Below, piece after piece: positions 1 through 11,475 of a DNA stretch of 62,538 nt. The first letter of the stretch is position 1, and each line of letters opens with the position of its first letter. The DNA comes from Deltaproteobacteria bacterium (GTDB lineage: Bacteria; Desulfobacterota; DSM-4660; Desulfatiglandales; B25-G16), in assembly GCA_020351915.1 (NCBI GenBank), contig CP070673.1, forward strand, positions 4,083,917 through 4,146,454, read 5' to 3'. The position numbers and the translations under genes were made by a program. The notes beneath the pieces are model-generated. The model was not told the origin of the DNA. It did not search any database and worked only from the letters and a program-made list of their open reading frames with translations.

Positions 1-293
1 CGCCTGCGGTGAAGGCAGGCCCATTTTTCCACATCATGAAGCTATTTTACCGGTATTTCGAGGGGCATGGCGGCGCCTTTCCAAGCAGCCATGTGGCCGT
101 CGCCATTTGCACCCTCTATTTCTCGTGGCGCTACCTCCCCCGTTTCCGCCATCTGCATATAGTCGCAGTCATCCTCATCTGCTTTTCGACCGTGTACTGC
201 CGGTACCACTATGCAGTGGACGTGCTTGCCGGCCTGGTGACCGCAGTCCTTCTGCTGCCGCTGGGGGAGTTTCTTTACCGCAGGCTGCAGTAG
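1..293 (+). CDS. PAP2-family phosphatase, C-terminal part (5' end outside window)
   Basis: The reading frame is open to the left edge, so the true start lies outside the window. The visible ~96 residues carry the last two parts of the PAP2 (phosphatidic acid phosphatase / bacitracin-resistance) signature: a PSSH motif and, about 40 residues on, an R-x-H-x3-D type motif (CRYHYAVDVLAG). Both lie beside hydrophobic segments typical of this polytopic membrane family. Such enzymes dephosphorylate lipid phosphates or undecaprenyl pyrophosphate at the membrane. Substrate cannot be decided from the fragment. The frame ends cleanly with TAG after an LYRRLQ tail. Confidence 0.82.
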   Translation, partial: PAVKAGPFFHIMKLFYRYFEGHGGAFPSSHVAVAICTLYFSWRYLPRFRHLHIVAVILICFSTVYCRYHYAVDVLAGLVTAVLLLPLGEFLYRRLQ

Positions 294-379
294 ATGACGG
301 AGCCAGAGCCAAGTTGAAATTCCGGTGACACCATACTAATTTCTTGGCATAGTGGCAGTACAAGTATGATTTTTATTCT

Positions 380-610
380 ATGGCAAGAATCGCACGAGTG
401 GTGGCCCTAGGATTTCCCCACCATAGAGAATGATACCTGGAGCAGTGCATTGGAGCGCATGTCCGGTCATGATGACAAACTTGTACAGGCTGTTGCCCCA
501 TTGCTTGAGATAACGGGAGATGAATGGGAAGCTTCATAGAGAACCTGGAGAATATGCTTTGTTGCATTTTGAAACCAAAAAACGCAGGCAGAAAACCAAA
601 AAGCAAATAG
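380..610 (+). pseudogene. Remnant of an IS200-like / TnpA_REP transposase
   Basis: The segment opens with MARIARVVALGFPHH, the usual N-terminus of IS200-like (Y1_Tnp) transposases, and then hits a stop. About 100 bases on, a different frame resumes with a typical C-terminal stretch (GDEWEAS, then after a frameshift IENLENMLCCILKPKNAGRKPKSK, ending at TAG 608-610). The catalytic middle with the HxH and Tyr motifs is gone. The two ends belong to the same family, so an internal deletion plus frameshift is the simplest reading. It sits just left of an intact relative at 762-1733. Confidence 0.6.
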
Positions 611-692
611 AAATAAGTATGCTGCTCCTAGATTCAAATATACTGAAATATCAGAGAATTCCACCTCTAAGGGTAGCGGAGAATCTATTATA

Positions 693-717
693 GGGGACGT
701 TGTTGACTATATTGAAT
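693..717 (+). repeat. Left 25-bp inverted repeat of the RAYT element
   Basis: This 25-base sequence begins GGGGACGTTGTTGACTATAT and is the exact reverse complement of 1736-1760. The pair brackets the transposase gene at 762-1733 with only 44 bases on the left and 2 on the right, so together they define a compact element of about 1.07 kb. No target duplication was evident next to the repeats. Confidence 0.85.
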
Positions 718-761
718 AACTTTGATATGCTGGGTTATATTGATCATTGGGAGCAAGCGCT

Positions 762-1733
762 ATGCCCAGACAGGCAAGACTTGATGCCCCGGGTACTTTG
801 CACCATGTCATGGTCAGAGGGATAGAAACGGGCAAGATTGTTGATGACAACAAGGATCGGCATAATTTTATCTCTCGGATGGGCAAGATTGCCTCTGAGA
901 GCAGCACGGTGATCTATGCCTGGGCATTAATGAACAATCACGCCCACATCCTTTTACGGAGTGGGCCCGATGGTTTGTCACAGTACATGCGACGCTTTCT
1001 CACCGGCTATGCCATCACCTATAATCGCCGTCATGGCCGGTACGGGCATCTTTTTGAGAATCGGTATAAATCAATACTCTGTGATGAGGATACCTATTTT
1101 CAGGAGTTAGTTCGCTACATTCACCTGAATCCTCTCAGGGCAGAAGTGGTGAAGGATATGGGTGAACTTGAAGGATACCGTTGGTGTGGTCACGGTGTCA
1201 TAATGGGCAGGATGAAATATGAATGGCAGGATCGTGATTATGTCCTGTCCTGGTTTGGCAAGAAAGAGGGAGACGCTCGGAGGGCATACCGCAAATATGT
1301 TCAAGGAGGGATTGTTCAGGGGAGGCGTCCGGATTTAGTGGGAGGGGGGTTAATCCGTTCCGTAGGAGGTTGGTCTGAGGTGTTATCTCTGCGCAGGAAT
1401 AAAGAGCGGGTGCTGGCTGATGAGAGGATATTGGGTAGTGGGGATTTTGTCAAACGGGTTTACAGAGAAGCTGATGAACGAATGAAATATCAGCTCTCTG
1501 ATGGCGAGCGCGGAAAAAAGGTCGAGGAGTTAATTGAGCGAGTCTGCAGAAAAGAGGCAGTTAATAGTAATGAGTTGCGGATGGGCAGCCGGAGAGGTAA
1601 TATCTCTCAAGTGAGGTCGCACCTGGCGTTTCAATTGGTTGAGGATTATGGTCTTTCTTTAGCAGAAGCTGCCCGCCAACTTGGCGTATCGACATCTGCT
1701 ATATCCAAAGCGCTCCGGAGAGCAATAAAATAG
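762..1733 (+). CDS. REP-associated tyrosine (Y1/HUH) transposase, RAYT-like
   Basis: A 323-residue single-strand DNA transposase of the Y1_Tnp fold. The HUH pair is visible as NNHAHILL (His60, His62), and the catalytic tyrosine lies in ELVRYIHLNPLRAE (Tyr119). The C-terminal third ends in a helix-turn-helix (LSLAEAARQLGVSTSAISKALRR), as in longer RAYT proteins. The ATG at 762 is chosen over an upstream TTG because MPRQARLDAPG is the family's normal N-terminus and a GGGAG lies ~10 bases upstream. All motifs are intact, so the protein could be active. It is flanked by perfect 25-bp inverted repeats, which is unusual for a Y1 enzyme. Confidence 0.9.
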   Translation: MPRQARLDAPGTLHHVMVRGIETGKIVDDNKDRHNFISRMGKIASESSTVIYAWALMNNHAHILLRSGPDGLSQYMRRFLTGYAITYNRRHGRYGHLFENRYKSILCDEDTYFQELVRYIHLNPLRAEVVKDMGELEGYRWCGHGVIMGRMKYEWQDRDYVLSWFGKKEGDARRAYRKYVQGGIVQGRRPDLVGGGLIRSVGGWSEVLSLRRNKERVLADERILGSGDFVKRVYREADERMKYQLSDGERGKKVEELIERVCRKEAVNSNELRMGSRRGNISQVRSHLAFQLVEDYGLSLAEAARQLGVSTSAISKALRRAIK

Positions 1734-1735
1734 TA

Positions 1736-1760
1736 ATTCAATATAGTCAACAACGTCCCC
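1736..1760 (-). repeat. Right 25-bp inverted repeat of the RAYT element
   Basis: Exact reverse complement of 693-717. It starts two bases after the TAG stop of the transposase. Extending either arm by one base breaks the match, so the repeat is sharply bounded. Confidence 0.85.
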
Positions 1761-1785
1761 CATACAAAAAGGAGCTGCCTACCAG

Positions 1786-3141
1786 ATGACTAGCAGATCG
1801 GCCTGGAAATATGGGATGCTCTTCCCCTTCCTACTGGTTTTGTTCGCACTGAATAGCAACGCCGGAGAAAAACAAGGGAGTCTTCACAGAATACACAAAA
1901 CCAAAAAGATAACCGTCATAACCAGAAACAACGCCCACTGTTACTATATTTATCGTGAAGAGCCTATGGGGTTTGAATACAACCTGGCCAGAGCTTTTGC
2001 CAACTATTTGGGGGTAGGCTTAACCGTAAAAACGTTTCCTTGGGCGGATATGATCAAGGCCCTCAACGAGGGCAGAGGTGATTTTATCGCCGCCAGCAAA
2101 ACCATTACCCCATCCCGCAAGAAACTGGTAGATTTTTCCAACGGGTATTTATCGGTTCGGCAGAGGGTGGTGATACACGAGGATAACCGCACCATTAATA
2201 AGCTAGTGGACCTGAACGGCAAGGTCATCCATATCCGCAGGGCCACTTCCTATGAGGAACGGCTATCCGAACTAAAGAAGCAGGGCCTGGATTTTACCCT
2301 TGCACTTCATGATGACGTTCCCACCGAGGAACTGATTAGGCAGGTAGCTGACAAACAGATTGAGGTAACCGTAGCCGATTCCAATATTGCCCAATTAAAC
2401 CGTCGTTATTACCCCAACATTAAGATCGGCATTCCCATTGCAGAAAGAGAGTCCCTAGGCTGGGCGGTAAAAAAGCAAGACAAGGCTCTCCTGAGTGCAA
2501 TAAACACCTTTTTTGAAAAGATAAAGACTGATGGAACATTCGACGATATTTACCGGGACTACTATGCCAACGTGCAAATCTTTGACCGATTTGATTTGAA
2601 GAAATTCCACCAGAGGATCAACCTCAGACTGCCCAAATATGAGACGATCATTAAGAAGGCTGCAAAACAATACGGTTTCGATTGGAGGTTGATTGCTGCT
2701 ATAATATATCAGGAATCCCATTTCAACCCGAGAGCCAGAAGTCACCGTGGGGTAAGGGGGCTCATGCAACTTACCAAGCCAACCGCTCAAGAGATGGGCG
2801 TTACCAACCGGCTCGACCCTGAGCAGAGCGTAATGGGCGGGGTTAGGTACCTAAGAAGGCTTTACCAACGATATGACGAGGCACAGGGTTTCGACCGGAT
2901 CCTCATTACGCTAGCCAGTTACAATGTCGGCCCCAGGCATATTACGAGCGCTCAAAGGATTGCCCGCGAAAAAGGGCTTGACTCCCACAAATGGTCCTCC
3001 CTTGAGCAGACCCTTCCCCTTTTGTGTTACGAAAAATACATAAGAATGAGTAAACACGGCTATTGCCGCGGGAGCGAACCGGTCCGATTCGTAAATCGAA
3101 TCCTAGCCTACTTTGACATCCTGAGAAGACAGGCCATATGA
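1786..3141 (+). CDS. mltF: MltF-like membrane-bound lytic murein transglycosylase
   Basis: A 451-residue protein with an N-terminal hydrophobic signal/anchor (residues 9-26). A periplasmic solute-binding (SBP_bac_3) domain follows at about 40-265, then a C-terminal SLT lytic transglycosylase domain at about 285-420. The catalytic glutamate is Glu310 in IIYQESHFNP, followed by the family landmarks GLMQLTKPTA and ASYNVGPRHI. This domain order is that of MltF, which cleaves peptidoglycan glycan strands to 1,6-anhydromuramyl ends at the envelope. An AAGGAG lies about 11 bases before the ATG. It is transcribed away from the upstream transposase element and looks monocistronic. Confidence 0.9.
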   Translation: MTSRSAWKYGMLFPFLLVLFALNSNAGEKQGSLHRIHKTKKITVITRNNAHCYYIYREEPMGFEYNLARAFANYLGVGLTVKTFPWADMIKALNEGRGDFIAASKTITPSRKKLVDFSNGYLSVRQRVVIHEDNRTINKLVDLNGKVIHIRRATSYEERLSELKKQGLDFTLALHDDVPTEELIRQVADKQIEVTVADSNIAQLNRRYYPNIKIGIPIAERESLGWAVKKQDKALLSAINTFFEKIKTDGTFDDIYRDYYANVQIFDRFDLKKFHQRINLRLPKYETIIKKAAKQYGFDWRLIAAIIYQESHFNPRARSHRGVRGLMQLTKPTAQEMGVTNRLDPEQSVMGGVRYLRRLYQRYDEAQGFDRILITLASYNVGPRHITSAQRIAREKGLDSHKWSSLEQTLPLLCYEKYIRMSKHGYCRGSEPVRFVNRILAYFDILRRQAI

Positions 3142-3629
3142 GCACTTCGGGGATATTGCCGTTCATAAACCCATTCAATCCTAATGTAGCTCGGCTTGAT
3201 CATAAAACCTCGCTACACGGCTTTGGTGTCGCCTTACAGCACGTTATCAAGTCAGCTTTCGAGCCTTTACTAATCTGCACCTGCTTTTCATCAACCGCGA
3301 CAGGCAACCTGTCGATAGCTATTTCAACGACTGGTCCGGGCTTTCCACCACTGGGCGATGGGGCCAGCAATTGCGGCGGAGTTGTATACTCCAACTCAAG
3401 TGAGATCGGGGTTCTGGGATAATTCTTCAGCAAACTCCAAGACTCCGTTACGAATGATCAGTGCAAAATCACCACTGTTGTTCCCCGAGATACTCGCACC
3501 AAGCTCGATATTGGCTGTTGCTGTCTTTTGAACGTCCAGTTTGAAACGCAAACTTTCCAGAATTCGTCCGGTGGGGAACACGCGAACCAGATCGGGCGCC
3601 TGTAGGTCAATGGCCTTATCGGAACGAAA
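3142..3629. other. Unassigned spacer with a possible decayed minus-strand gene
   Basis: Nothing here matches a family I recognise. On the minus strand an open frame reads down from about 3674 to a stop at 3396, containing the plausible protein-like stretch LVRVFPTGRILESLRFKL. A second minus-strand frame continues from about 3433 to 3200 with no natural start. The two may be halves of one frameshifted gene, but the evidence is only frame openness and composition. Confidence 0.25.
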
Positions 3630-4022
3630 ATGGGGATTTACGCCAGGGAGCTTTTGGATGCCCCAAGAAGAAAAATGAAAACAGTATCTGAATGCGGAGG
3701 CGGGAAATATCCTGTCAAATGCATCAATGATGGGATAGTTGTGTCCACTTTGTGTTCCCCTGTTTATGGAAGGCTGACAATCGATAGATCAAAAGGCAAT
3801 TATGCCGCGGTATTCAGCTATGGGGGCAAAACTGTCCGCCTTGGATTAAAGCAAAGCTACCGTTCCCAATTGGAGGCCAGAATAGATGATGCGGTGAAAA
3901 AATACAGGAAAGAAGGAAAGTTTACTCCGCCGTATTGGGAAGAGGTTAGGAAAATGACATGGTGGGCATGGGAGGAATGGGATAGGAAGGTGGTTTTTGA
4001 TGTTCAGTGGATTGAAAAGTAG
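3630..4022 (+). CDS. Hypothetical small protein (~115-130 aa)
   Basis: I do not recognise the family. The frame encodes a soluble protein rich in Lys, Tyr and Trp, with a short beta-rich centre (GRLTIDRSKGNYAAVFSYGG), then a helical basic segment and a Trp-rich end (MTWWAWEEWDRKVVF). There is no signal peptide or membrane segment. The ATG at 3675 (MKTVSECGGG) is an alternative start, and neither has a strong ribosome site. It stops 13 bases before one of the direct repeats that bracket the following ATPase gene. Its codon usage looks like a real gene. Confidence 0.5.
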   Translation: MGIYARELLDAPRRKMKTVSECGGGKYPVKCINDGIVVSTLCSPVYGRLTIDRSKGNYAAVFSYGGKTVRLGLKQSYRSQLEARIDDAVKKYRKEGKFTPPYWEEVRKMTWWAWEEWDRKVVFDVQWIEK

Positions 4023-4034
4023 ATCATAAACAGC

Positions 4035-4090
4035 TCCATTCTGCTCTTGATTCAATGGGGTCGTATGCAACAACTCTGGAATAGGGATCT
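4035..4090. repeat. Left copy of ~56-bp imperfect direct repeat flanking the ATPase gene
   Basis: The block begins TCCATTCTGCTCTTG and continues through a GTATGCAACAACTCTGGAA core. The same order of words recurs in the same orientation at 5543-5598 with scattered substitutions. The two copies bracket the AAA/DUF4143 gene and its palindrome. Confidence 0.7.
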
Positions 4091-4222
4091 TTCAATAAAA
4101 GCCAAAAAGCACCCTCTGTTCTTTTAAGATTATCTGGGTCATACACTTAACACGTGGCACATGTGTTGGCGAAGCAATTTCAATTTTCAGATTCCTCTGT
4201 TCCTTGTAAGGCTCAAGTGGAA

Positions 4223-5443
4223 CTAAGGCAACTGGGAGAGCCACGCGTATGCTGGAGCAATAAGAATAGATTGGTCATTGTTCGAAAAGATTCGATATCC
4301 CTCATCCTCAGCTATGAGCTGAACTGCTGGTATGTTCAGCGCATTTTGAAATTTTCTGAGCGCGGAAGAAGGTTGGATCTCTGAAGTTTTGGCCTCTATC
4401 AGGACAATCGGTTTGCGCCCGTTTGCGATCAAAAAATCTACTTCCTGCTGTTCTTTGTTCTTTATGAAATGCAAAGAGAACTGGCCATAGCCCAAATCAT
4501 TCCAGTTTGTAACCGCCCGCCACAACTCCATGGCGATCATATTTTCAAACCGGGCAGTAGGCTCTTCTATGCGGGGTGCATCCCACAGATAGACCTTGCG
4601 TTCTTTTTGGATAGCCCGAGCAATTCTTTCTGTCCATGGGGCAATACTAAAAATCAAGAAAAATCTTTCAAAAACTGATAGCCAGCCTCGAACTGAGTTA
4701 TAGGATACTTTTAAGTCAGTGGCGAGGGATGGGATCGAGAGAGGACTGCCCACCTTAGAGGGTAGCAAAAGATAGAGCGTCTCCATATCTGCTACAGATT
4801 TGATCCCGGTGAGATCGCGAATATCCTCACGAATGAGTTGAGCGGAATAGCTGCTTGACCATCGACGGTATGTCGCCATCCGGTTAGCTAAATAGGGTTC
4901 AGGAAAACCACTGAGCGTAGATAGCCGTGACCACTCTTCTTTGAGCATTTCGCTACGTTCCATACTGATTTGCACCGGATTTTCCAAAAAGTTTTCGATT
5001 GTGAGGTTACTCTCTCCCAATTCTCCCATTGTAAAAGGCCATAGATGAAAGAGAAAATAACGACCAGCCAGAGAGTCTCCGCCTTTTTGATAGATGTCTA
5101 GCCTGCCACTTCCTGATACGAGGAATTGATATCTGTCATGAAATTGGTCGTAAGCACCTTTGAGATAGTTCTTCCAGTCTTTGTATTTGTGGATCTCATC
5201 AAATATGATTAGAGGTGTTGATGGATCTCGGCGCTTGATTTCTTGGAAAAATGTGGGATTCTCCATAAGTCTGGTCCTGTGCTGCGGAATATCCCAGTTG
5301 AAATAGAGGTTATTCGGAAAACACCGGGAAATAATCTGGGTGAGTGTGGTCTTGCCCACCTGCCGCGGTCCGACAAGAAATACCATGTTTTTTTCTCTGG
5401 CTAGTTCCTGCCAGATTTTCAAATAAGGGTCTCTCGTTTCCAT
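4223..5443 (-). CDS. AAA-family ATPase with DUF4143 domain
   Basis: A 406-residue P-loop ATPase of the AAA_14/DUF4143 group. It has Walker A GPRQVGKTT (residues 25-33), Walker B PLIIFDEIHK (77-86) and an SGSGRLD sensor-like strand at about 109-117. The C-terminal half carries a DUF4143 region with a nuclease-like segment (EVDFLIANGRKPIVLIEAKTS), the E-x-K spacing seen in PD-(D/E)XK folds. Members are widespread, often horizontally spread, and of poorly defined function. The gene stands alone between direct repeats (4035-4090 and 5543-5598). A perfect 30-bp palindrome 19 bases before its ATG could be its operator. It reads convergent with the small gene at 3630-4022. Confidence 0.85.
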   Translation of the reverse strand: METRDPYLKIWQELAREKNMVFLVGPRQVGKTTLTQIISRCFPNNLYFNWDIPQHRTRLMENPTFFQEIKRRDPSTPLIIFDEIHKYKDWKNYLKGAYDQFHDRYQFLVSGSGRLDIYQKGGDSLAGRYFLFHLWPFTMGELGESNLTIENFLENPVQISMERSEMLKEEWSRLSTLSGFPEPYLANRMATYRRWSSSYSAQLIREDIRDLTGIKSVADMETLYLLLPSKVGSPLSIPSLATDLKVSYNSVRGWLSVFERFFLIFSIAPWTERIARAIQKERKVYLWDAPRIEEPTARFENMIAMELWRAVTNWNDLGYGQFSLHFIKNKEQQEVDFLIANGRKPIVLIEAKTSEIQPSSALRKFQNALNIPAVQLIAEDEGYRIFSNNDQSILIAPAYAWLSQLP

Positions 5444-5462
5444 AATGGCTATTATTCAGTAA

Positions 5463-5492
5463 AATGAAAAATAGTCAAGACTATTTTTCATT
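5463..5492 (-). promoter_or_regulatory. Perfect 30-bp palindrome upstream of the ATPase gene (operator-like)
   Basis: Two 14-base arms (AATGAAAAATAGTC and its exact complement) are separated by two bases. The site lies 19 bases upstream of the ATPase start codon at 5443. This position and symmetry suit a dimeric repressor site; it could also fold as a hairpin in the leader. The arms are AT-rich and no protein is known to bind here. Confidence 0.55.
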
Positions 5493-5542
5493 ACGGTGAA
5501 AACTTGGCAAAAATAGCTAATTCCAAAACTCGGAAGAACGGT

Positions 5543-5598
5543 TCCATTCTGCTCTTGGTTCACATAGATAGTATGCAGCAACTCTGGAACGGGGGCTC
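5543..5598. repeat. Right copy of ~56-bp imperfect direct repeat
   Basis: Same orientation and word order as 4035-4090: an identical 15-base opening TCCATTCTGCTCTTG, then GTATGCAGCAACTCTGGAA and a purine-rich end. The spacing of about 1.5 kb is just enough to contain the ATPase gene and its palindrome. Confidence 0.7.
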
Positions 5599-5622
5599 TG
5601 AATCAAAAGGGGTTAGCTGATT

Positions 5623-5660
5623 TGGCGTCCCCAATCCCGCCCTGATGGCGGGATGTCTTG
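5623..5660 (-). pseudogene. tRNA-Glu relic 3 (3' acceptor end plus GC hairpin)
   Basis: Read on the minus strand, this keeps TTGGGGACGCCA, the acceptor 3' end with CCA seen in the intact tRNA-Glu at 5851-5928. The T-arm is replaced by a GC hairpin (TCCCGCC, 5-base loop, GGCGGGA on the plus strand, 5635-5653), after which a GACA-like fragment follows. It cannot fold as a tRNA. Confidence 0.5.
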
Positions 5661-5671
5661 CACCAACATAC

Positions 5672-5699
5672 AAAAAAGGTTAGCAATAATGAGCTAACC
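5672..5699 (-). terminator. Rho-independent terminator after tRNA relic 2
   Basis: On the minus strand a 7-bp stem (GGTTAGC with GCTAACC, arms at 5678-5684 and 5693-5699) is followed directly by TTTTTT. It lies 15 bases past the 3' end of the relic at 5714-5785. Confidence 0.65.
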
Positions 5700-5713
5700 C
5701 TTCGAAAGTATAC

Positions 5714-5785
5714 TGGCGTCCCCAACCGGATTTGAACCGGAATGTTGTCCCGCTCAAAGAGCGGGGTGTCCTGGACCTAAGGTTT
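5714..5785 (-). pseudogene. tRNA-Glu relic 2 (3' half, aberrant anticodon arm)
   Basis: The minus strand keeps an intact T-arm (CCGGTTCAAATCCGG) and acceptor 3' end with CCA, matching the functional tRNA-Glu next to it. The anticodon arm is a GC palindrome (CCCGCTCTTTGAGCGGG) with C instead of U at position 33, and the arm interval is two bases longer than in the intact gene. Upstream of the D-arm the sequence diverges, so the 5' acceptor strand is missing. A 34-base block (5745-5778) is identical to 5993-6026 in relic 1. Confidence 0.6.
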
Positions 5786-5801
5786 CATTCTATGGCTAAT
5801 C

Positions 5802-5840
5802 AAAAAAAAAAGAGATTAACCCACATCTCAGGTAATCTCT
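5802..5840 (-). terminator. Rho-independent terminator of tRNA-Glu
   Basis: On the minus strand an 8-bp stem (AGAGATTA with TAATCTCT, arms 5833-5840 and 5811-5818) is followed by a run of ten T. It starts 11 bases after the CCA end of the tRNA at 5851-5928. Confidence 0.75.
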
Positions 5841-5850
5841 CAAAGTTAAC

Positions 5851-5928
5851 TGGCGTCCCCAACCGGATTTGAACCGGTGTTGTCGGCGTGAAAGGCCGAT
5901 GTCCTGGACCTGACTAGACGATGGGGAC
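5851..5928 (-). tRNA. tRNA-Glu (anticodon UUC), CCA encoded
   Basis: The minus strand folds as a complete cloverleaf. It has a 7-bp acceptor (GTCCCCA with TGGGGAC), discriminator G and encoded CCA. The anticodon stem is TCGGC/GCCGA with loop CTTTCAC, giving anticodon TTC at plus positions 5890-5892, and the T-arm is ACCGG/CCGGT. It is the only intact tRNA in a locus that also holds three relics of the same gene. A single promoter at 6088-6115 and a terminator at 5802-5840 fit this transcription unit. Confidence 0.95.
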
Positions 5929-5984
5929 GCGAATTGTCCTTTTTCTTTAGACTCCGTCTTTATTCACCCCTCTCGCCTATTTCA

Positions 5985-6043
5985 GGACCCGGTTGTCCCG
6001 CTCAAAGAGCGGGGTGTCCTGGACCTGGCTAGACGATGGGGAC
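5985..6043 (-). pseudogene. tRNA-Glu relic 1 (5' half, aberrant anticodon arm)
   Basis: On the minus strand the acceptor 5' strand and D-arm are intact (GTCCCCATCGTCTAG, then CCAGGTCCAGGAC). They are followed by the same GC palindrome found in relic 2. The T-arm and 3' acceptor are absent and the sequence runs into CGGGTCCTG, which can pair back with CCAGGAC. It is the first gene-like segment after the promoter at 6088-6115, where a first tRNA-Glu copy would be expected. Confidence 0.6.
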
Positions 6044-6087
6044 GCTACTAATCTCTGGTTATCTCTATTACTTTGCCGGGTTCGATT

Positions 6088-6115
6088 ATTATAGGCATAT
6101 CCGGTCAATAGTCAA
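6088..6115 (-). promoter_or_regulatory. Sigma-70-type promoter of the tRNA-Glu locus
   Basis: Minus-strand -35 TTGACT (6110-6115) and a perfect -10 TATAAT (6088-6093) with a 16-base spacer. The predicted start near 6080 lies about 37 bases before the first tRNA-like segment. Confidence 0.75.
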
Positions 6116-6517
6116 CAGGGAAAGGTACCTTTTGGTTTGTCATGTCAGATCAAAGTTAATTTTCTCACATGATATGGGACACCGACACAAACCGTAACAA
6201 CGTCTTAAAGGGATGGGCGCCATAAAGATATCAAAGGGGAATGCTGGTGCTCCCCCTTTCTTGCCATACCGTGAGCTGCCTTTTCCGTTGACACGCAGAC
6301 CCCTTTACTCAATGCTTCTCTCGCCCATAAGGGAACTTATGTTCTTCTCTTTCAAGCATGGGCGGGACTACTCTGTAATCCTCATTGCCGGGCTCTTTAA
6401 AGGTCTAGATCACCTTTCGGGCATTCAGATGAGGGTGAGCAGGGTTATGAGTAACTGAGGAAAGGAGAACTGGAATCCATGCTTGGCGAAAAGGATTGTT
6501 CTAGGAGGTAGGGAAAT
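6116..6517. other. Spacer without recognised gene
   Basis: About 400 bases between the tRNA promoter and the broken UspA gene. A plus-strand open frame at 6213-6458 encodes an Arg/Pro/Phe-rich product with no family resemblance and no ribosome site, so I treat it as non-coding. A clear AGGAGG ribosome site for the following gene lies at about 6501-6508. Confidence 0.4.
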
Positions 6518-7394
6518 ATGTACAAACAGATACTGGTTCCCCTGGATGGTTTAGAATTGGCTGAGAAGATAATTCCTCACGTGGAAGAATTGGCTAACAA
6601 GTTTGATAGTGAGGTTATTTTACTTACGGTGTGTCCGTCAGGGGATTATCCAGAGCTCCCCTTGAGGGCATACTTAGACAAGGCTGCCCGAGACCTCCAG
6701 TCTGCAGGGGTGTGAGGACGAGTACAATAGTTGCCTAGGGCAATGCTGCCGTTGAAATCCTCAGTTTTGCTGAGAAGAACCGTACCGACCTGATTCTCAT
6801 TTCTACCCATGGCCGTTCTGGCACCGGCGATTGGACTTTGGGAAGTATAGCTAATAAGGTTCTGCAGCGGGCGCACGTTCCCATACTCCTCGTGAGGTCA
6901 CATAAATTAGAAGCTCGGACTGCAAACAAGGCGCCGTGGAGGATTCTCGTGCTTCTAGACGGTTCGGACTGTGCCGAAAGAGTGATTCCCCATGTGGAGG
7001 GTTTAACCAAGGAGACGGATAATGAGGTCTTCTCCTCAGGATTACTGAGCCTTTAACGACACCGCACTTTGTGGTTCACTCGGGTGGATTTGACTGGGAA
7101 AAGTATGAAAAAGACGTGCTAGCTAGGCTGGAGACAGAAGCAAAACACTACTTGGGCAGGAGAGAGCATAGCTTGCAACGTAAGGGAGTAAAGGCTACCT
7201 CAGTATCCCTTGTGGGGAGGCCAGCTCGGACTATACTCCAGTATGCGGAGGATGACGCCATTAACCTGATAGCATTATCAAGTCATGGTCTTTCAGGAGT
7301 AACCAAGTGGGTCCTTGGGAGCGTGGTCTCCAAGATTATTCAGCATTCCTCACAGTCGATTTTGCTCGTTCGACCTCCATTATCCGTCGGTTAG
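6518..7394 (+). pseudogene. Tandem-domain universal stress protein (UspA), frameshifted
   Basis: The start MYKQILVPLDGLELAEKIIP is a typical UspA N-terminus behind a good AGGAGG. The frame breaks at about 6713. The continuation in another frame contains an in-frame TAG (6736-6738), then STHGRSGTGDWTLGS with the ATP-binding G-2x-G-9x-G(S/T) pattern and VPILLVR. A second Usp domain starts (ILVLLDGSDCAERVIPHVEG) and breaks again at about 7030. It resumes to a normal end with SSHGLSGVTKWVLGSVVSKI at 7394. Two frameshifts plus one stop make a functional full-length protein unlikely. Intact relatives are cytoplasmic nucleotide-binding stress proteins. Confidence 0.85.
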
Positions 7395-7542
7395 GCTCAT
7401 TCATAGCCTGCCGTGGTGTTCCCCTGCCAGGTTCCTTCCGCCAGCATGACCAACTGGCTCACCCAAAGGGTAAGCAAGAATTTGATGGCATCGGGAAATA
7501 CAGGAATAGCTTAAACTGTGCCAGGTACAGTTAGATACAAAG

Positions 7543-7576
7543 AGGGTGAAGAGAGCTGTTCTCCTCACCCTTTTTT
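7543..7576 (+). terminator. Terminator hairpin between the UspA relic and the symporter
   Basis: Arms GGGTGA-A-GAG and CTC-C-TCACCC surround a 7-base loop and are followed by TTTTTT on the plus strand. It lies about 150 bases past the UspA relic and just before the stop of the convergent symporter gene. Confidence 0.65.
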
Positions 7577-7607
7577 CTATGAACTGCGAAAGGAAATGCC
7601 AATGAAA

Positions 7608-8804
7608 TTAACCAGCAGCTGCTGCTTCGCCAAATTTCTTATTGACGATCATTGCTATGGTAGCATCACCAGTGATATTTGCCGCTGTTCCAAAAGAATC
7701 CTGAATCATAAAAAGCGCAAACATCAATCCCATGGCTTCATCGCCGAACCCGAGAACCCCCACCAGTACGGGCCACGCAGCCATGATCGATCCACCCGGA
7801 ACTCCTACTGCACCGACTTCAATAACGCTGAGAATCAAGAAGAACAGAATCAGACTGAGGAGCCCCGGAATTACTTGGTCTGTAAGCATTGAAACAGTAA
7901 TCGCGCTGATGGTTATCGTCATGGCAGACCCTGAGAGATGGGTTTGGGAACACAAGGGGAAAACAAAATCCGCAATGTCTTCCTTCATGAAAGGAATCAT
8001 CTTCCCCCTTGCAAGGGAGACCGGCATGGTGACCGCACTGGACATAGTACCCCAGGCCGTCAAGTAAGCGGGAAAAACGATCTTGAATACGGAAAACGGG
8101 TTCTCTTTGACGTGAGATCCTGCAATCGTGTACTGAATGAAGAGCCATATCCACTGCAAGATAACGATGATAATGAGCATGATTCCCAAAACTTTCATTT
8201 TTGGCCAGATATCTCCCTTATAAGCTAATTGCGCAAATACGCATGCGATGTAGAAAGGAATGATAGGAATGATTACCCGGCGGATCATTGTACTGCTTAT
8301 ATCCCTCAGTTCTCGGAGCACGTTCATGAGGCCTTCCGCCTTGGTCCACGTCATTCCGATTCCAAGAACAAAACCCAGCACGATGGATGTAATAAGAGAA
8401 GCTGAGAATGGGTAAGGAATCTTGATGTTAACGATATTAGGAGGAAGCTTACGGGGTTTTATCTCCCCCATGGCAATGTCCGTAATGGCGGGAAAAAGCT
8501 TAAAGAAAGCGATAATGACCGCTGCTCCCAATGCGCAGGCAATAACCGTGTAGATGTAAGAAAGACCTACCGTGAATCTTAACATCTTGCCTGCCCGCAG
8601 ACCGAGGTCGGCAATTCCCACGGCAAGAAAGCTGATCATAATGAATGGCAAGAAAAACTGTATAAGGTCTTTTAATATTGATCGTCCAAAAACAACGATA
8701 TACATTAACCACTTCATGCCTGCCAACTGACCTAACCATGCTCCAACAAGTAAGCCCAATATTATCCCAACAACCAGTTTTGTTATTAAAGCGTATTGTT
8801 TCAT
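7608..8804 (-). CDS. Dicarboxylate/amino acid:cation symporter (DAACS/SDF family)
   Basis: A 398-residue integral membrane protein with about 8-10 hydrophobic segments. It carries the hallmark Ser-rich re-entrant region (AWGTMSSAVTMPVS) and the later GVPGGSIMAA and DSFGTAANITGDA motifs of GltP/DctA-like symporters, which bind Na+ or H+ and an acidic substrate. The ATG at 8804 is preferred over a GTG two codons upstream because GGGAGGGG lies right before it. Likely substrates are glutamate, aspartate or C4-dicarboxylates; the exact one cannot be read. It lies 52 bases downstream of the threonine aldolase gene on the same strand, so amino-acid uptake and degradation may be co-transcribed. Confidence 0.88.
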   Translation of the reverse strand: MKQYALITKLVVGIILGLLVGAWLGQLAGMKWLMYIVVFGRSILKDLIQFFLPFIMISFLAVGIADLGLRAGKMLRFTVGLSYIYTVIACALGAAVIIAFFKLFPAITDIAMGEIKPRKLPPNIVNIKIPYPFSASLITSIVLGFVLGIGMTWTKAEGLMNVLRELRDISSTMIRRVIIPIIPFYIACVFAQLAYKGDIWPKMKVLGIMLIIIVILQWIWLFIQYTIAGSHVKENPFSVFKIVFPAYLTAWGTMSSAVTMPVSLARGKMIPFMKEDIADFVFPLCSQTHLSGSAMTITISAITVSMLTDQVIPGLLSLILFFLILSVIEVGAVGVPGGSIMAAWPVLVGVLGFGDEAMGLMFALFMIQDSFGTAANITGDATIAMIVNKKFGEAAAAG

Positions 8805-8856
8805 AACCACCCCTCCCTTTTTGATAACACTTATTGTTGTTTGTTATTCCCTTGTT

Positions 8857-9897
8857 TTATTGGACTCGTTGAATGATCTTTCCAATTCTCTCCAAGACAA
8901 AATCAATGTCTTTCGGTTCAATATCATTATGTAGAACCATGCGCATCGTGTCTTTTGAGCACACCTTGGCCTTAATATTAGATTGATTCAATTTTTCTGC
9001 CAAAGATAAAGATTCCCAACCCACTGGTGAAACATCTAAATTGATTATATTTGTTAGGATCCCTCCTCGATCAACTCTTATCCCTAAAGCTTCAAGACCC
9101 AATCTCATTGTTTCCGCGTTTTCATGATCTTCATCTAGCCTTTCAACCATCTTTGTTAGGCCAATAATAGCGGGCGCTGCAATGACGCCGGCCTGTCTCA
9201 TTCCTCCACCGAGACGCTGCTTGATTCTTCTGGCTTCTTCAATAAAACCTCTGCTTCCCGCAAGTATTGATCCAAGAGGGGCGGCCAACCCCTTGCTGAG
9301 GCATACGGCAACCGAATCGCAGAAATTGACCAATTCCTTTACCTCTAGATTTAAGGCCGCCGCAGCATTGAAAATACGAGCCCCATCCATGAATAGCGGA
9401 ATATCCTTCTCCTTGGCAATTTCTATTGTCTCCTCATAATCCTGCCTTTTAACTGCTAGACCCCGATCAAGATGAAAGCTGTTTTCCAAACAAATCAAAC
9501 GCGTCCTCGCTCTTTGGACTCCATCAGGCATAATGGCTTGCTTGAGAAGTCCTGCTTCATAAATTCCGTTTTCGGTTTTTACCGGCCGTGGTTGAACCCC
9601 AGAGATGGCTGAAAGTGCTCCGGTTTCAAGATTGTAGATATGTGAGTCAGAAAAGACAACGATTTCATCGCCCGGCCTTGTGTAGACCATTACGGCAATC
9701 TCGTTGCTCATTGTTCCGGAAATTGTGAAGAGCGAGGCTTCCTTTCCAAAGATTTCGGCAGCTAGCTCCTCAAGTTCGATCACCGTGGGATCATCTCTCA
9801 GGATATCATCTCCAACGATTGCATTCTTCATGGCCTCTCGCATTTCGGGGGTAGGCTTGGTTACCGTGTCGCTTCTTAGATCAATAACCTTCTCCAT
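8857..9897 (-). CDS. ltaE: Low-specificity L-threonine aldolase
   Basis: A 346-residue PLP enzyme of fold type I that cleaves L-threonine or allo-threonine to glycine and acetaldehyde. The N-terminal IDLRSDTVTKPT and GDDILRDDPTV are diagnostic. The PLP lysine is Lys202 in CLSKGLAAPLGS, and MDGARIFNAA holds the cofactor-binding Asp. Length fits the family (330-350). The following gene on the same strand is an amino-acid/dicarboxylate symporter. Glycine produced here could feed a glycine-cleavage or lipoyl-carrier route, since a GcvH-like gene lies 2.6 kb away, but that link is inference. Confidence 0.92.
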   Translation of the reverse strand: MEKVIDLRSDTVTKPTPEMREAMKNAIVGDDILRDDPTVIELEELAAEIFGKEASLFTISGTMSNEIAVMVYTRPGDEIVVFSDSHIYNLETGALSAISGVQPRPVKTENGIYEAGLLKQAIMPDGVQRARTRLICLENSFHLDRGLAVKRQDYEETIEIAKEKDIPLFMDGARIFNAAAALNLEVKELVNFCDSVAVCLSKGLAAPLGSILAGSRGFIEEARRIKQRLGGGMRQAGVIAAPAIIGLTKMVERLDEDHENAETMRLGLEALGIRVDRGGILTNIINLDVSPVGWESLSLAEKLNQSNIKAKVCSKDTMRMVLHNDIEPKDIDFVLERIGKIIQRVQ

Positions 9898-10271
9898 TCC
9901 TTTGTCCGCTTGTTATGAGTTATTGTGCTGTTCTTGATGGGTTCTTTGAAAGGTGATGCTTAGTACTATTAGGCTGAGAAATGATATAAATAACGACTTC
10001 TTGATGTTTACTACCTGGGTGAATTTGGAAAGTCAAGAACATTATTTTGTTACCCAGCGTTTAGCAAGAAAAGAATTGCCACCCATGATAAAGGGCATCT
10101 TAGGCAACACTCAAAAGGACAGGCAGCGGAGCCGTCTTTTGTGCATGGCCATATATGAACGGATAACATTAAGGACCGACGGGGAGCGGTAGAAAGCCTC
10201 CTGCTGGCATCCTAAGCAGTTGAAAGGAAGCGGGGTTTAACCAACCTGGCTAAACCCCTTGATACTATTGA
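9898..10271. other. Spacer with one hairpin near tRNA-Lys
   Basis: About 370 bases without a convincing gene. A plus-strand frame at 9953-10192 has no ribosome site or family match. A stem of 8 bp (GGGGTTTA/TAAACCCC, 10232-10258) lies just past the 3' end of the minus-strand tRNA-Lys. It may act as its terminator, though no T-run follows on that strand. Confidence 0.4.
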
Positions 10272-10345
10272 TGGGCCGTGCGTGAATCGAACACGCGACC
10301 AACGGATTAAAAGTCCGCTGCTCTACCTGACTGAGCTAACGGCCC
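10272..10345 (-). tRNA. tRNA-Lys (anticodon UUU)
   Basis: The minus strand gives a full cloverleaf: acceptor GGGCCGT/ACGGCCC, D-arm GCTC...GAGC, anticodon arm CGGAC-TTTTAAT-CCG with anticodon TTT, and T-arm CGTG-TTCGATT-CACG. The discriminator base is A and CCA is not encoded. Confidence 0.95.
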
Positions 10346-10422
10346 ATACATGCTGTGCCTAGGTTTTTTAGTAACACTATTGGGATAGTGTGTCAAAAAA
10401 ATTATACACGGTTATATGAAGT

Positions 10423-11475
10423 TCAATTTGGACCTATGGTAAAGATGTGGCTTTGAATCAGATTTAATTCCTCTTTATTGGGGGGGTAAGGATAATTCCA
10501 TTGTTTTTCTCCGGGCAGGCTGTTACCAAAAGGCCTGTTGCAGGCAACTTCGCCATCCTCATCCAGACATCCACCGGTCATAAACGGGGTGCCCAGGTTG
10601 ATGATTTGGATCAAATCATCTTTTGGTAGACCAAAGTCCGTAATGTGTCCATCTTTATCGAAATCCATGTCGGATGCCGAGATAGAGCGTTCTTCTAATA
10701 GATAGCGTGCAAGCTGAATTCTCAGATAGGTGGGCCACGGTGGCTGTTTTCTATTCTCCAGTTTGGAATTGGGTTCAGCAAAAAATGAAAAGAGATGATT
10801 TACAACCCCCATGTTCCAAAGCCTTTCCATAACGGTAACCATCTCCTTTTCAGTCTCACCCATGCCTACCATGAGATGACTTCCAACATTACGTTCACCA
10901 AAGATCTCAAGGCCATCGCCCACGGTCTGCCAGTATTTCTCCCATTTGTGAGGTCCTGACACCCCCTTTCCCCGGTAGAGATTGAAAAGCTCCGGGGTGG
11001 CCAGATCAAGAGCGACACCAATCTTGTCTGCACCGCTTTCTTTCATTGCTCTGAGATCATCAATGTTCAATACTGTTGGGCTTATAAGGATGGAGATCGG
11101 GATTGCAGTCTCCTTTTTGAGTCGCTGAGTCATGGCGATCGTATCTTTTCGGCATCTGCCATTGGTGATCATGGAAATACAGGTCCGTTTGACATATTCA
11201 GGACCACCGTTGATAGCTTCAATAATGGCGTCCATAGAGAAGAGAGGCCATTGAACCATAATAAAGCTCTTTTCCCTATACGAACCCGTTCTTTTTTTTG
11301 CGAGGCCGCAGTACGCACAATTCGCTGCACATCCTTCGTTGTAATGAACAAGAAGATTTGCGCATCGATTTTTAGCCCCTCGGTAAAAGCGTCCGTGAGA
11401 CAGACCGAGGGACATAGCAGTGGCACTACTTATCCTTGCATAGTCGGGGCTCTGTTTTGGACGCTTAGCAACCAT
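10423..11475 (-). CDS. Radical SAM protein of the BioB/LipS type, candidate lipoyl synthase subunit
   Basis: A 350-residue radical SAM protein with the CxxxCxxC cluster motif at Cys49, Cys53 and Cys56 (NEGCAANCAYCGLA) and a SAM-binding-like GMGETEKEM. A C-terminal pair of cysteines lies in GGCLDEDGEVACNRPFGN and could ligate a second, sacrificial or auxiliary Fe-S cluster. It is the third gene of a compact unit: GcvH-like carrier, lipoate ligase (12 bases upstream), then this gene. In organisms using the LipS1/LipS2 route, two such proteins insert sulfur into octanoyl groups. Only one is present here, and no classical lipA or lipB is in the window. The role in lipoate assembly is therefore a context-based inference; a biotin-synthase-like activity is the main alternative. 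Confidence 0.7.
   Translation of the reverse strand: MVAKRPKQSPDYARISSATAMSLGLSHGRFYRGAKNRCANLLVHYNEGCAANCAYCGLAKKRTGSYREKSFIMVQWPLFSMDAIIEAINGGPEYVKRTCISMITNGRCRKDTIAMTQRLKKETAIPISILISPTVLNIDDLRAMKESGADKIGVALDLATPELFNLYRGKGVSGPHKWEKYWQTVGDGLEIFGERNVGSHLMVGMGETEKEMVTVMERLWNMGVVNHLFSFFAEPNSKLENRKQPPWPTYLRIQLARYLLEERSISASDMDFDKDGHITDFGLPKDDLIQIINLGTPFMTGGCLDEDGEVACNRPFGNSLPGEKQWNYPYPPNKEELNLIQSHIFTIGPN

What the first reader, a model, noticed from the sequence alone, without database searches (positions are those of the whole stretch)
5623..6043. tRNA-Glu locus with one intact and three hairpin-interrupted relics
One promoter and terminator frame a real tRNA-Glu. Around it lie a 5' half (relic 1), a 3' half (relic 2) and a 3' acceptor end (relic 3). 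In each, a GC palindrome replaces the anticodon or T-arm. Relics 1 and 2 share an identical 34-base block, so they may be halves of one former gene separated by recombination around the intact copy. The relics keep the promoter-proximal place and the CCA ends, so they could still be transcribed and compete for processing.
Basis: seen in the sequence. Interest (0 to 1): 0.75.

Follow-up and report, generated by a model that had tools for sequence, protein, structure and literature searches.

The report
Hairpin-invaded tRNA-Glu copies around intact gene
Beside its only working tRNA-Glu(UUC) gene this bacterium carries three broken copies in which GC-rich hairpins of a kind scattered through its genome stand in for tRNA arms; related bacteria share the pattern, and one broken copy, lying in the tRNA's own transcript, is preserved better than junk should be.

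Summary
An intact tRNA-Glu(UUC) (5928-5851, minus) is flanked by relic 1 (6043-5992), relic 2 (5778-5714) and relic 3 (5665-5623). Relics 1 and 2 share an identical 35-base block. The palindromes are more than a degenerate anticodon arm: TCCCGC(n)GCGGGA hairpins occur 65 times in this genome against 1 in the control. Hairpin-tRNA-Glu chimeras flank the gene in 18 of 62 loci of the order, always in sense orientation, against about 0 in shuffles. In one relative (G015) both the anticodon arm and the T-arm have been exchanged for hairpins. Relics 2 and 3 look like recombination debris at a tRNA used as an island landing site. Relic 1 is different: it lies between promoter and tRNA, and its 63-base non-tRNA part is 78-98% identical in relatives while adjacent flanks are at shuffle level. 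That suggests constraint, possibly a structured leader, but arm covariation was not shown. By-product: a 36-nt leader motif before tRNA-Glu in 31 of 85 genomes, without an Rfam match.

The parts
5851..5928 (-). intact tRNA-Glu (anticodon UUC); the only other tRNA-Glu found in this genome is tRNA-Glu(CUC) at 677 kb
   Evidence: ARAGORN, Rfam 62.5 bits; second Glu gene
6088..6115 (-). sigma70-type promoter TTGACT-16-TATAAT upstream of relic 1
   Evidence: the same promoter stands directly before the tRNA in G002 and before relic 1 in G004
5992..6043 (-). relic 1, tRNA-like part: tRNA-Glu 5' half (28 of 29 bases) plus palindrome in place of the anticodon arm
5929..5991 (-). 3' arm of relic 1, abutting the tRNA 5' end; partly complementary to the tRNA 5' half; conserved in the family
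5997..6013 (-). palindrome CCCGCTCTTTGAGCGGG in relic 1
5802..5840 (-). terminator of the intact tRNA: AGAGATTA, loop, TAATCTCT, 10 T
   Evidence: seen in the sequence; the scanner misses it because the loop is longer than 8
5714..5778 (-). relic 2: D-arm 3' side, palindrome, T-arm, 3' acceptor strand and CCA; lacks the 5' acceptor strand
5749..5765 (-). palindrome CCCGCTCTTTGAGCGGG in relic 2, identical to that of relic 1
5674..5703 (-). terminator after relic 2; homologous to the one that follows the intact tRNA in G002
5623..5665 (-). relic 3: AAGACA, palindrome TCCCGCCATCAGGGCGGGA, then TTGGGGACGCCA
   Evidence: longer two-hairpin form in G002

Best explanation
This is a tRNA-Glu pseudogene cluster built by local recombination and colonised by short GC hairpins. 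(1) Shown: the sole tRNA-Glu(UUC) gene is flanked, in this genome and in relatives of several families, by same-orientation partial copies. (2) Shown: the stem-loops in these copies match a short palindrome (TCCCGC..GCGGGA, often with a 3-nt loop) that is dispersed through the genome and sits in many unrelated intergenic contexts. (3) Inferred: copies arise by tandem duplication or unequal exchange between repeated tRNA ends, helped by island integration at the tRNA 3' end, and hairpins enter or convert the anticodon arm and T-arm of copies that are no longer under selection. Deletions between hairpins then give short forms such as relic 3. (4) Inferred: relics 2 and 3, behind terminators, are non-functional debris. 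Relic 1 is transcribed as the tRNA's 5' leader, folds as a long imperfect hairpin, and is under some constraint in the window's family. Its most likely role, if any, is as a self-contained leader structure that keeps a 5'-half copy from mispairing with the real tRNA's 3' half and leaves the RNase P site free.
For: Intact gene and relic anatomy. Hairpin-tRNA chimeras in 18 of 62 tRNA-Glu(UUC) loci of the order, about 0 in shuffles and 0 in antisense; examples L009, L010, L012 (two tandem relic-1 units), L024, L033, L042, L051, L063, L067, L068. Tandem arrays of the downstream unit in G066/G067 and a complete tRNA skeleton with both arms exchanged in G015. Genome-wide palindromes 65 vs 1 control in G000, 327 vs 4 in G071, in varied contexts. 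Loci judged by eye to carry chimeras come from genomes denser in palindromes, median 15.6 vs 4.7 per Mb, p=0.004, not corrected for phylogeny. Exact gain or loss of the 115-bp relic-1 unit between G004 and G002, which share the promoter. tRNA-Glu as an island landing site: 3'-half repeats from the anticodon loop to CCA in G037, G028, G045, and about 10 kb between tRNA and its repeat in G010. Relic-1 3' arm 98%, 79% and 78% identical in G004, G012 and G010 with 0-4 gaps, flanks at shuffle level; uvrC identity 93%, 79%, 77%.
Against: How a hairpin would replace an arm so exactly is not shown. The relic palindrome could instead descend from the anticodon arm of a former second tRNA-Glu: CCCGC-TTTTCAA-GCGGG in G012 and G033 reads as a proper UUC arm. 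Dispersed-palindrome density does not track the number of Y1/RAYT transposases (Spearman 0.16, p=0.13), so the mobiliser is unknown. Constraint on relic 1 rests on few genomes, and G002 has lost it.
Confidence: 0.6

Rival explanations
1. Plain birth-and-death of tandem tRNA-Glu genes. The palindrome is simply the anticodon arm of an extinct second tRNA-Glu, inherited in all copies, and nothing mobile is involved.
For: The arm CCCGC-TTTTCAA-GCGGG in G012 and G033 is a valid UUC arm; GGACATCCCGCTTNNCAAGCGGGA occurs mostly at tRNA-Glu loci.
Against: Hairpins of the same build occur at dozens of unrelated sites, and replace T-arms as well as anticodon arms (L142, L138, relic 3). Loop sequences vary (TTC, CTC, TCC, ATC, TTT) while the stem stays, and the inserted block is 2 bases longer than a normal arm.
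Confidence: 0.25
2. Scars of genomic islands: relics 2 and 3 are attR-like 3'-end copies left by successive island integrations at the tRNA 3' end.
For: Such 3'-half repeats exist in G037, G028, G045 and G010. Relics 2 and 3 end exactly at the tRNA 3' end.
Against: No island lies between tRNA and relics in the window. The classic repeats begin at the anticodon loop and carry no palindrome, whereas relic 2 begins in the D-arm. Relic 1, a 5' copy, is not explained.
Confidence: 0.3
3. Relic 1 is a functional tRNA-mimicking leader. Its 3' arm, antisense to the tRNA-Glu 5' half, can pair either with its own 5' arm or with the downstream tRNA, giving a switch that controls tRNA-Glu maturation.
For: The 3' arm is conserved while flanks are not. 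Complementarity exceeds shuffles at p<=0.024 in 5 of 10 loci. The predicted duplex of the arm with the tRNA 5' half is -29 kcal/mol.
Against: Own arms do not pair better than swapped arms (p=0.11); the 5' arm hardly varies, so covariation cannot be judged; G002 lacks relic 1; five of ten loci show no excess complementarity.
Confidence: 0.13
4. Split tRNA joined in trans, as in Nanoarchaeum: relic 1 and relic 2 are 5' and 3' halves.
For: One copy has the 5' side and one the 3' side, with a GC palindrome at the joint.
Against: An intact tRNA-Glu(UUC) lies between them, each piece holds the entire hairpin rather than one strand, and relatives have one piece without the other.
Confidence: 0.01

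Closest known systems
tRNA pseudogenes (e.g. survey PMC9858662)
   Same: Degenerate tRNA copies beside functional genes; bacterial tRNA pseudogenes are reported to be longer than functional genes, as insertions are tolerated.
   Different: Here the inserted or replacing pieces are GC hairpins at the arm positions, recurring across families, and one copy is conserved.
REP / short palindromic repeats and mobile hairpin elements (REPs: PMC12306157, PMC3686654; sponge mitochondrial RHEs: PMC2800124; yeast mitochondrial GC clusters: PMC4478555)
   Same: Short, numerous, hypervariable-loop palindromes, mostly intergenic. RHEs have been reported inside rRNA genes.
   Different: No mobiliser identified here. 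Precise exchange of tRNA arms in pseudogene copies is not something found in the papers examined; only a few were read.
Genomic islands in tRNA genes (Islander, PMC4383910)
   Same: The regenerated tRNA and a displaced 3' fragment mark island ends; seen in relatives at this very gene.
   Different: In the window the copies are 70-190 bases from the gene with no island between, start in the D-arm and carry a palindrome; a 5' copy exists as well.

Membership tests
functional tRNA gene (relics 1-3) | scores as tRNA by covariance model or ARAGORN | tested here: not met
   only the intact gene is called, Rfam up to E=10
tRNA-Glu pseudogene | sequence descent from tRNA-Glu | tested here: met
   28/29, 39/39 and 12/12 bases identical at homologous positions; 18 of 62 loci against about 0 in shuffles
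tRNA-Glu pseudogene | loss of selective constraint | tested here: inconclusive
   relics 2 and 3 vary freely between relatives; relic 1 is conserved better than its flanks
REP-like dispersed palindrome | many copies genome-wide, above control | tested here: met
   65 vs 1 in G000
REP-like dispersed palindrome (RAYT-mobilised) | linked to a RAYT/Y1 transposase | tested here: inconclusive
   a Y1_Tnp protein is at 747-1733; palindrome density vs Y1 density Spearman 0.16, p=0.13
genomic-island attachment scar | 3' tRNA fragment separated from the tRNA by an integrase-bearing element | tested here: not met
   relics 2 and 3 lie 70-190 bases from the gene with no gene between; repeats of the classic kind are seen in relatives only
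split (trans-spliced) tRNA | no intact gene; halves carry complementary single strands | tested here: not met
   intact gene present; each relic carries the whole hairpin
structured leader RNA (relic 1) | covarying base pairs | tested here: inconclusive
   excess complementarity in 5 of 10 loci, swap test p=0.11
structured leader RNA (relic 1) | transcribed and processed with the tRNA | not testable with these tools
   promoter placement only

The most novel reading that the evidence does not exclude
Relic 1 is not a relic but a working tRNA-mimicking leader: a hairpin made of the tRNA-Glu 5' half and an antisense arm that can switch pairing to the downstream tRNA, regulating maturation of the cell's only tRNA-Glu(UUC). 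It would be the counterpart of the separate leader motif found before the same gene in sister families.
Probability: 0.12. Interest if true: 0.75.

Novelty: new variant of a known kind. Interest (0 to 1): 0.45.

Why it matters
It shows short palindromes taking the place of tRNA arms in tRNA copies, recurrently over an order of bacteria, which gives a natural record of how hairpin repeats spread and of how tRNA genes duplicate and decay. It warns that such chimeras are miscalled as tRNA genes (tRNA-Gly, tRNA-Asp and tRNA-Glu(CUC) calls in L063, L067, L068). If relic 1 or the sister leader motif is functional, control of a tRNA gene by a structured leader becomes testable.

Tried and rejected
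Strict pattern ATCCCGC..GCGGGAT suggested the palindromes were local; relaxing one base each side showed 65 copies, so 'local only' was dropped. Split tRNA rejected on anatomy. RAYT-driven mobilisation: weak correlation, not claimed. Covariation of relic-1 arms: the alignment of the 3' arms is poor and the arm-swap test is not significant, so compensatory evolution is not claimed even though G026 and G039 looked suggestive by eye. Search for the relic-1 3' arm as a dispersed repeat: hits outside tRNA-Glu loci were mostly short hairpin matches. Rfam matches other than tRNA are chance.

Full report
Observation. The window holds one intact tRNA-Glu(UUC) on the minus strand at 5928-5851. Relic 1 (6043-5992) matches the first 29 tRNA bases with one mismatch and then has CCCGCTCTTTGAGCGGG instead of the anticodon arm. 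Relic 2 (5778-5714) has the D-arm 3' side, the same palindrome, and the last 27 tRNA bases unchanged. Relic 3 (5665-5623) has a different palindrome followed by the last 12 tRNA bases. Relics 1 and 2 are identical over 35 bases. None is called a tRNA. The promoter TTGACT-16-TATAAT at 6115-6088 precedes relic 1; terminators follow the tRNA (5840-5802, seen in the sequence) and relic 2. So relic 1 is in the tRNA's leader, while relics 2 and 3 are behind terminators.

The palindromes. The pattern TCCCGC-N(3-10)-GCGGGA occurs 65 times in this 5.1-Mb genome against 1 for the reversed control, and is similarly abundant in many genomes of the order. The copies lie in unrelated intergenic contexts and inside other repeats, with variable loops. 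The relic hairpins have the same build. They replace T-arms as well as anticodon arms: relic 3; G067 and G066, where the T-arm reads for example GTGGGTTTCCCGCTATGCGGGACTGGGGACG; and G015 (L142), where one tRNA-Glu skeleton at its normal seat after tRNA-Lys has both arms exchanged. A descent of the anticodon hairpin from a former second tRNA-Glu is not excluded, because G012 and G033 read as a valid UUC arm.

Relatives. A relative in the same order (G036; its contig length fits record JAQYVK010000430.1) is a Desulfatiglandales bacterium, so the window is taken to be from that order (inference). In 62 tRNA-Glu(UUC) loci of the order I counted upstream chimeras in 9 and downstream chimeras in 10 to 12 (18 loci with any), with shuffle expectations of 0 to 0.05 and none in antisense. 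Relic-free loci exist (L016, L017). G036 has two tandem relic-1 units, and G066/G067 have tandem arrays of downstream units. G004 and G002 share the promoter, but G004 has the 115-bp relic-1 unit between promoter and tRNA and G002 does not, with a junction exactly at the tRNA 5' end: gain or loss by recombination between the repeated 5' halves. The sequence after relic 2 is 60/66 identical to the sequence after the intact tRNA in G002, while the sequence after the intact tRNA in the window is not (30/66). Relic 2 therefore occupies the ancestral seat. This contradicts 'two halves of one gene' and fits mosaic exchange among repeats.

Integration hot spot. G037, G028 and G045 carry 3'-half copies from the anticodon loop to CCA elsewhere. 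In G010 about 10 kb separates the tRNA from a 3'-end copy and a downstream relic whose outer flank matches that of G012. These are classical island-type arrangements; the palindromic relics are not such junctions themselves.

Is relic 1 more than debris? Its 63-base 3' arm, which is not recognisably tRNA, is 98% identical in G004, 79% in G012 and 78% in G010 with 0-4 gaps (shuffle maximum about 0.70), while 60 bases either side of the unit are at shuffle level. uvrC from the window is 93%, 79% and 77% identical in the same genomes, so the arm evolves about like coding DNA. The whole unit folds as a long imperfect hairpin. The 3' arm adds more pairing energy than shuffles at p<=0.024 in 5 of 10 loci; these loci are not independent. 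Exchanging arms between lineages does not weaken pairing significantly (p=0.11). I read this as constraint without proof of structure.

Leader motif in sister families. In families f4 and f2 the tRNA-Lys to tRNA-Glu spacer holds GGACC-N3-UCUGAGG-N5-CCUCGRCGGUGACCA, with hairpin pairs that change on both sides (A-U 16, G-C 11). A covariance model finds exactly one copy in each of 31 of 85 genomes. The positions I compared with the tRNA table lie just upstream of tRNA-Glu. It is absent from the window's family, was found only in this order in a 395-genome phylum sample, and has no Rfam match at E<=1. In several genomes another palindrome sits in its loop.

Known things. Closest are tRNA pseudogenes (PMC9858662), REPs and mobile hairpin elements (PMC12306157, PMC2800124, PMC4478555) and tRNA-borne islands (PMC4383910). 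The combination seen here is a variant of these. Only a small set of papers was examined, so an earlier description cannot be excluded.

Noticed in passing
L045, L046, L052, L063 and others: spacer between tRNA-Lys and tRNA-Glu: Conserved 36-nt leader motif GGACC-N3-UCUGAGG-N5-CCUCGRCGGUGACCA before tRNA-Glu(UUC); single copy in 31 of 85 genomes of the order, covarying hairpin, no Rfam match.
   Followed up: partly
L020, L034, L051, L062, L066, L068: The loop of that leader motif is occupied by another palindrome CCCCGTGAAAT..ATTTCAC(T/C)GGGG, a motif also next to TCCCGC hairpins in the window's genome (L084, L093).
   Followed up: no
L138, L139 (G067, G066): Tandem arrays of tRNA-Glu 3'-half + hairpin units (about five in G066) separated by short spacers.
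   Followed up: partly
L063 827-901, L067 816-892, L068 538-693: ARAGORN calls chimeric relics as tRNA-Gly(tcc), tRNA-Asp(atc), tRNA-Glu(ctc): likely false tRNA annotations.
   Followed up: no
window 747-1733 (+): Y1_Tnp (IS200-like / RAYT-like) transposase with a C-terminal helix-turn-helix; 18 Y1 matches in the genome.
   Followed up: partly
L137 (G010) 1-11232: About 10 kb segment (by eye: branched-chain amino-acid ABC transporter, glutamine-synthetase-like gene, hydrolase) between tRNA-Glu and a 3'-end copy of the tRNA; possible genomic island with no obvious integrase.
   Followed up: no
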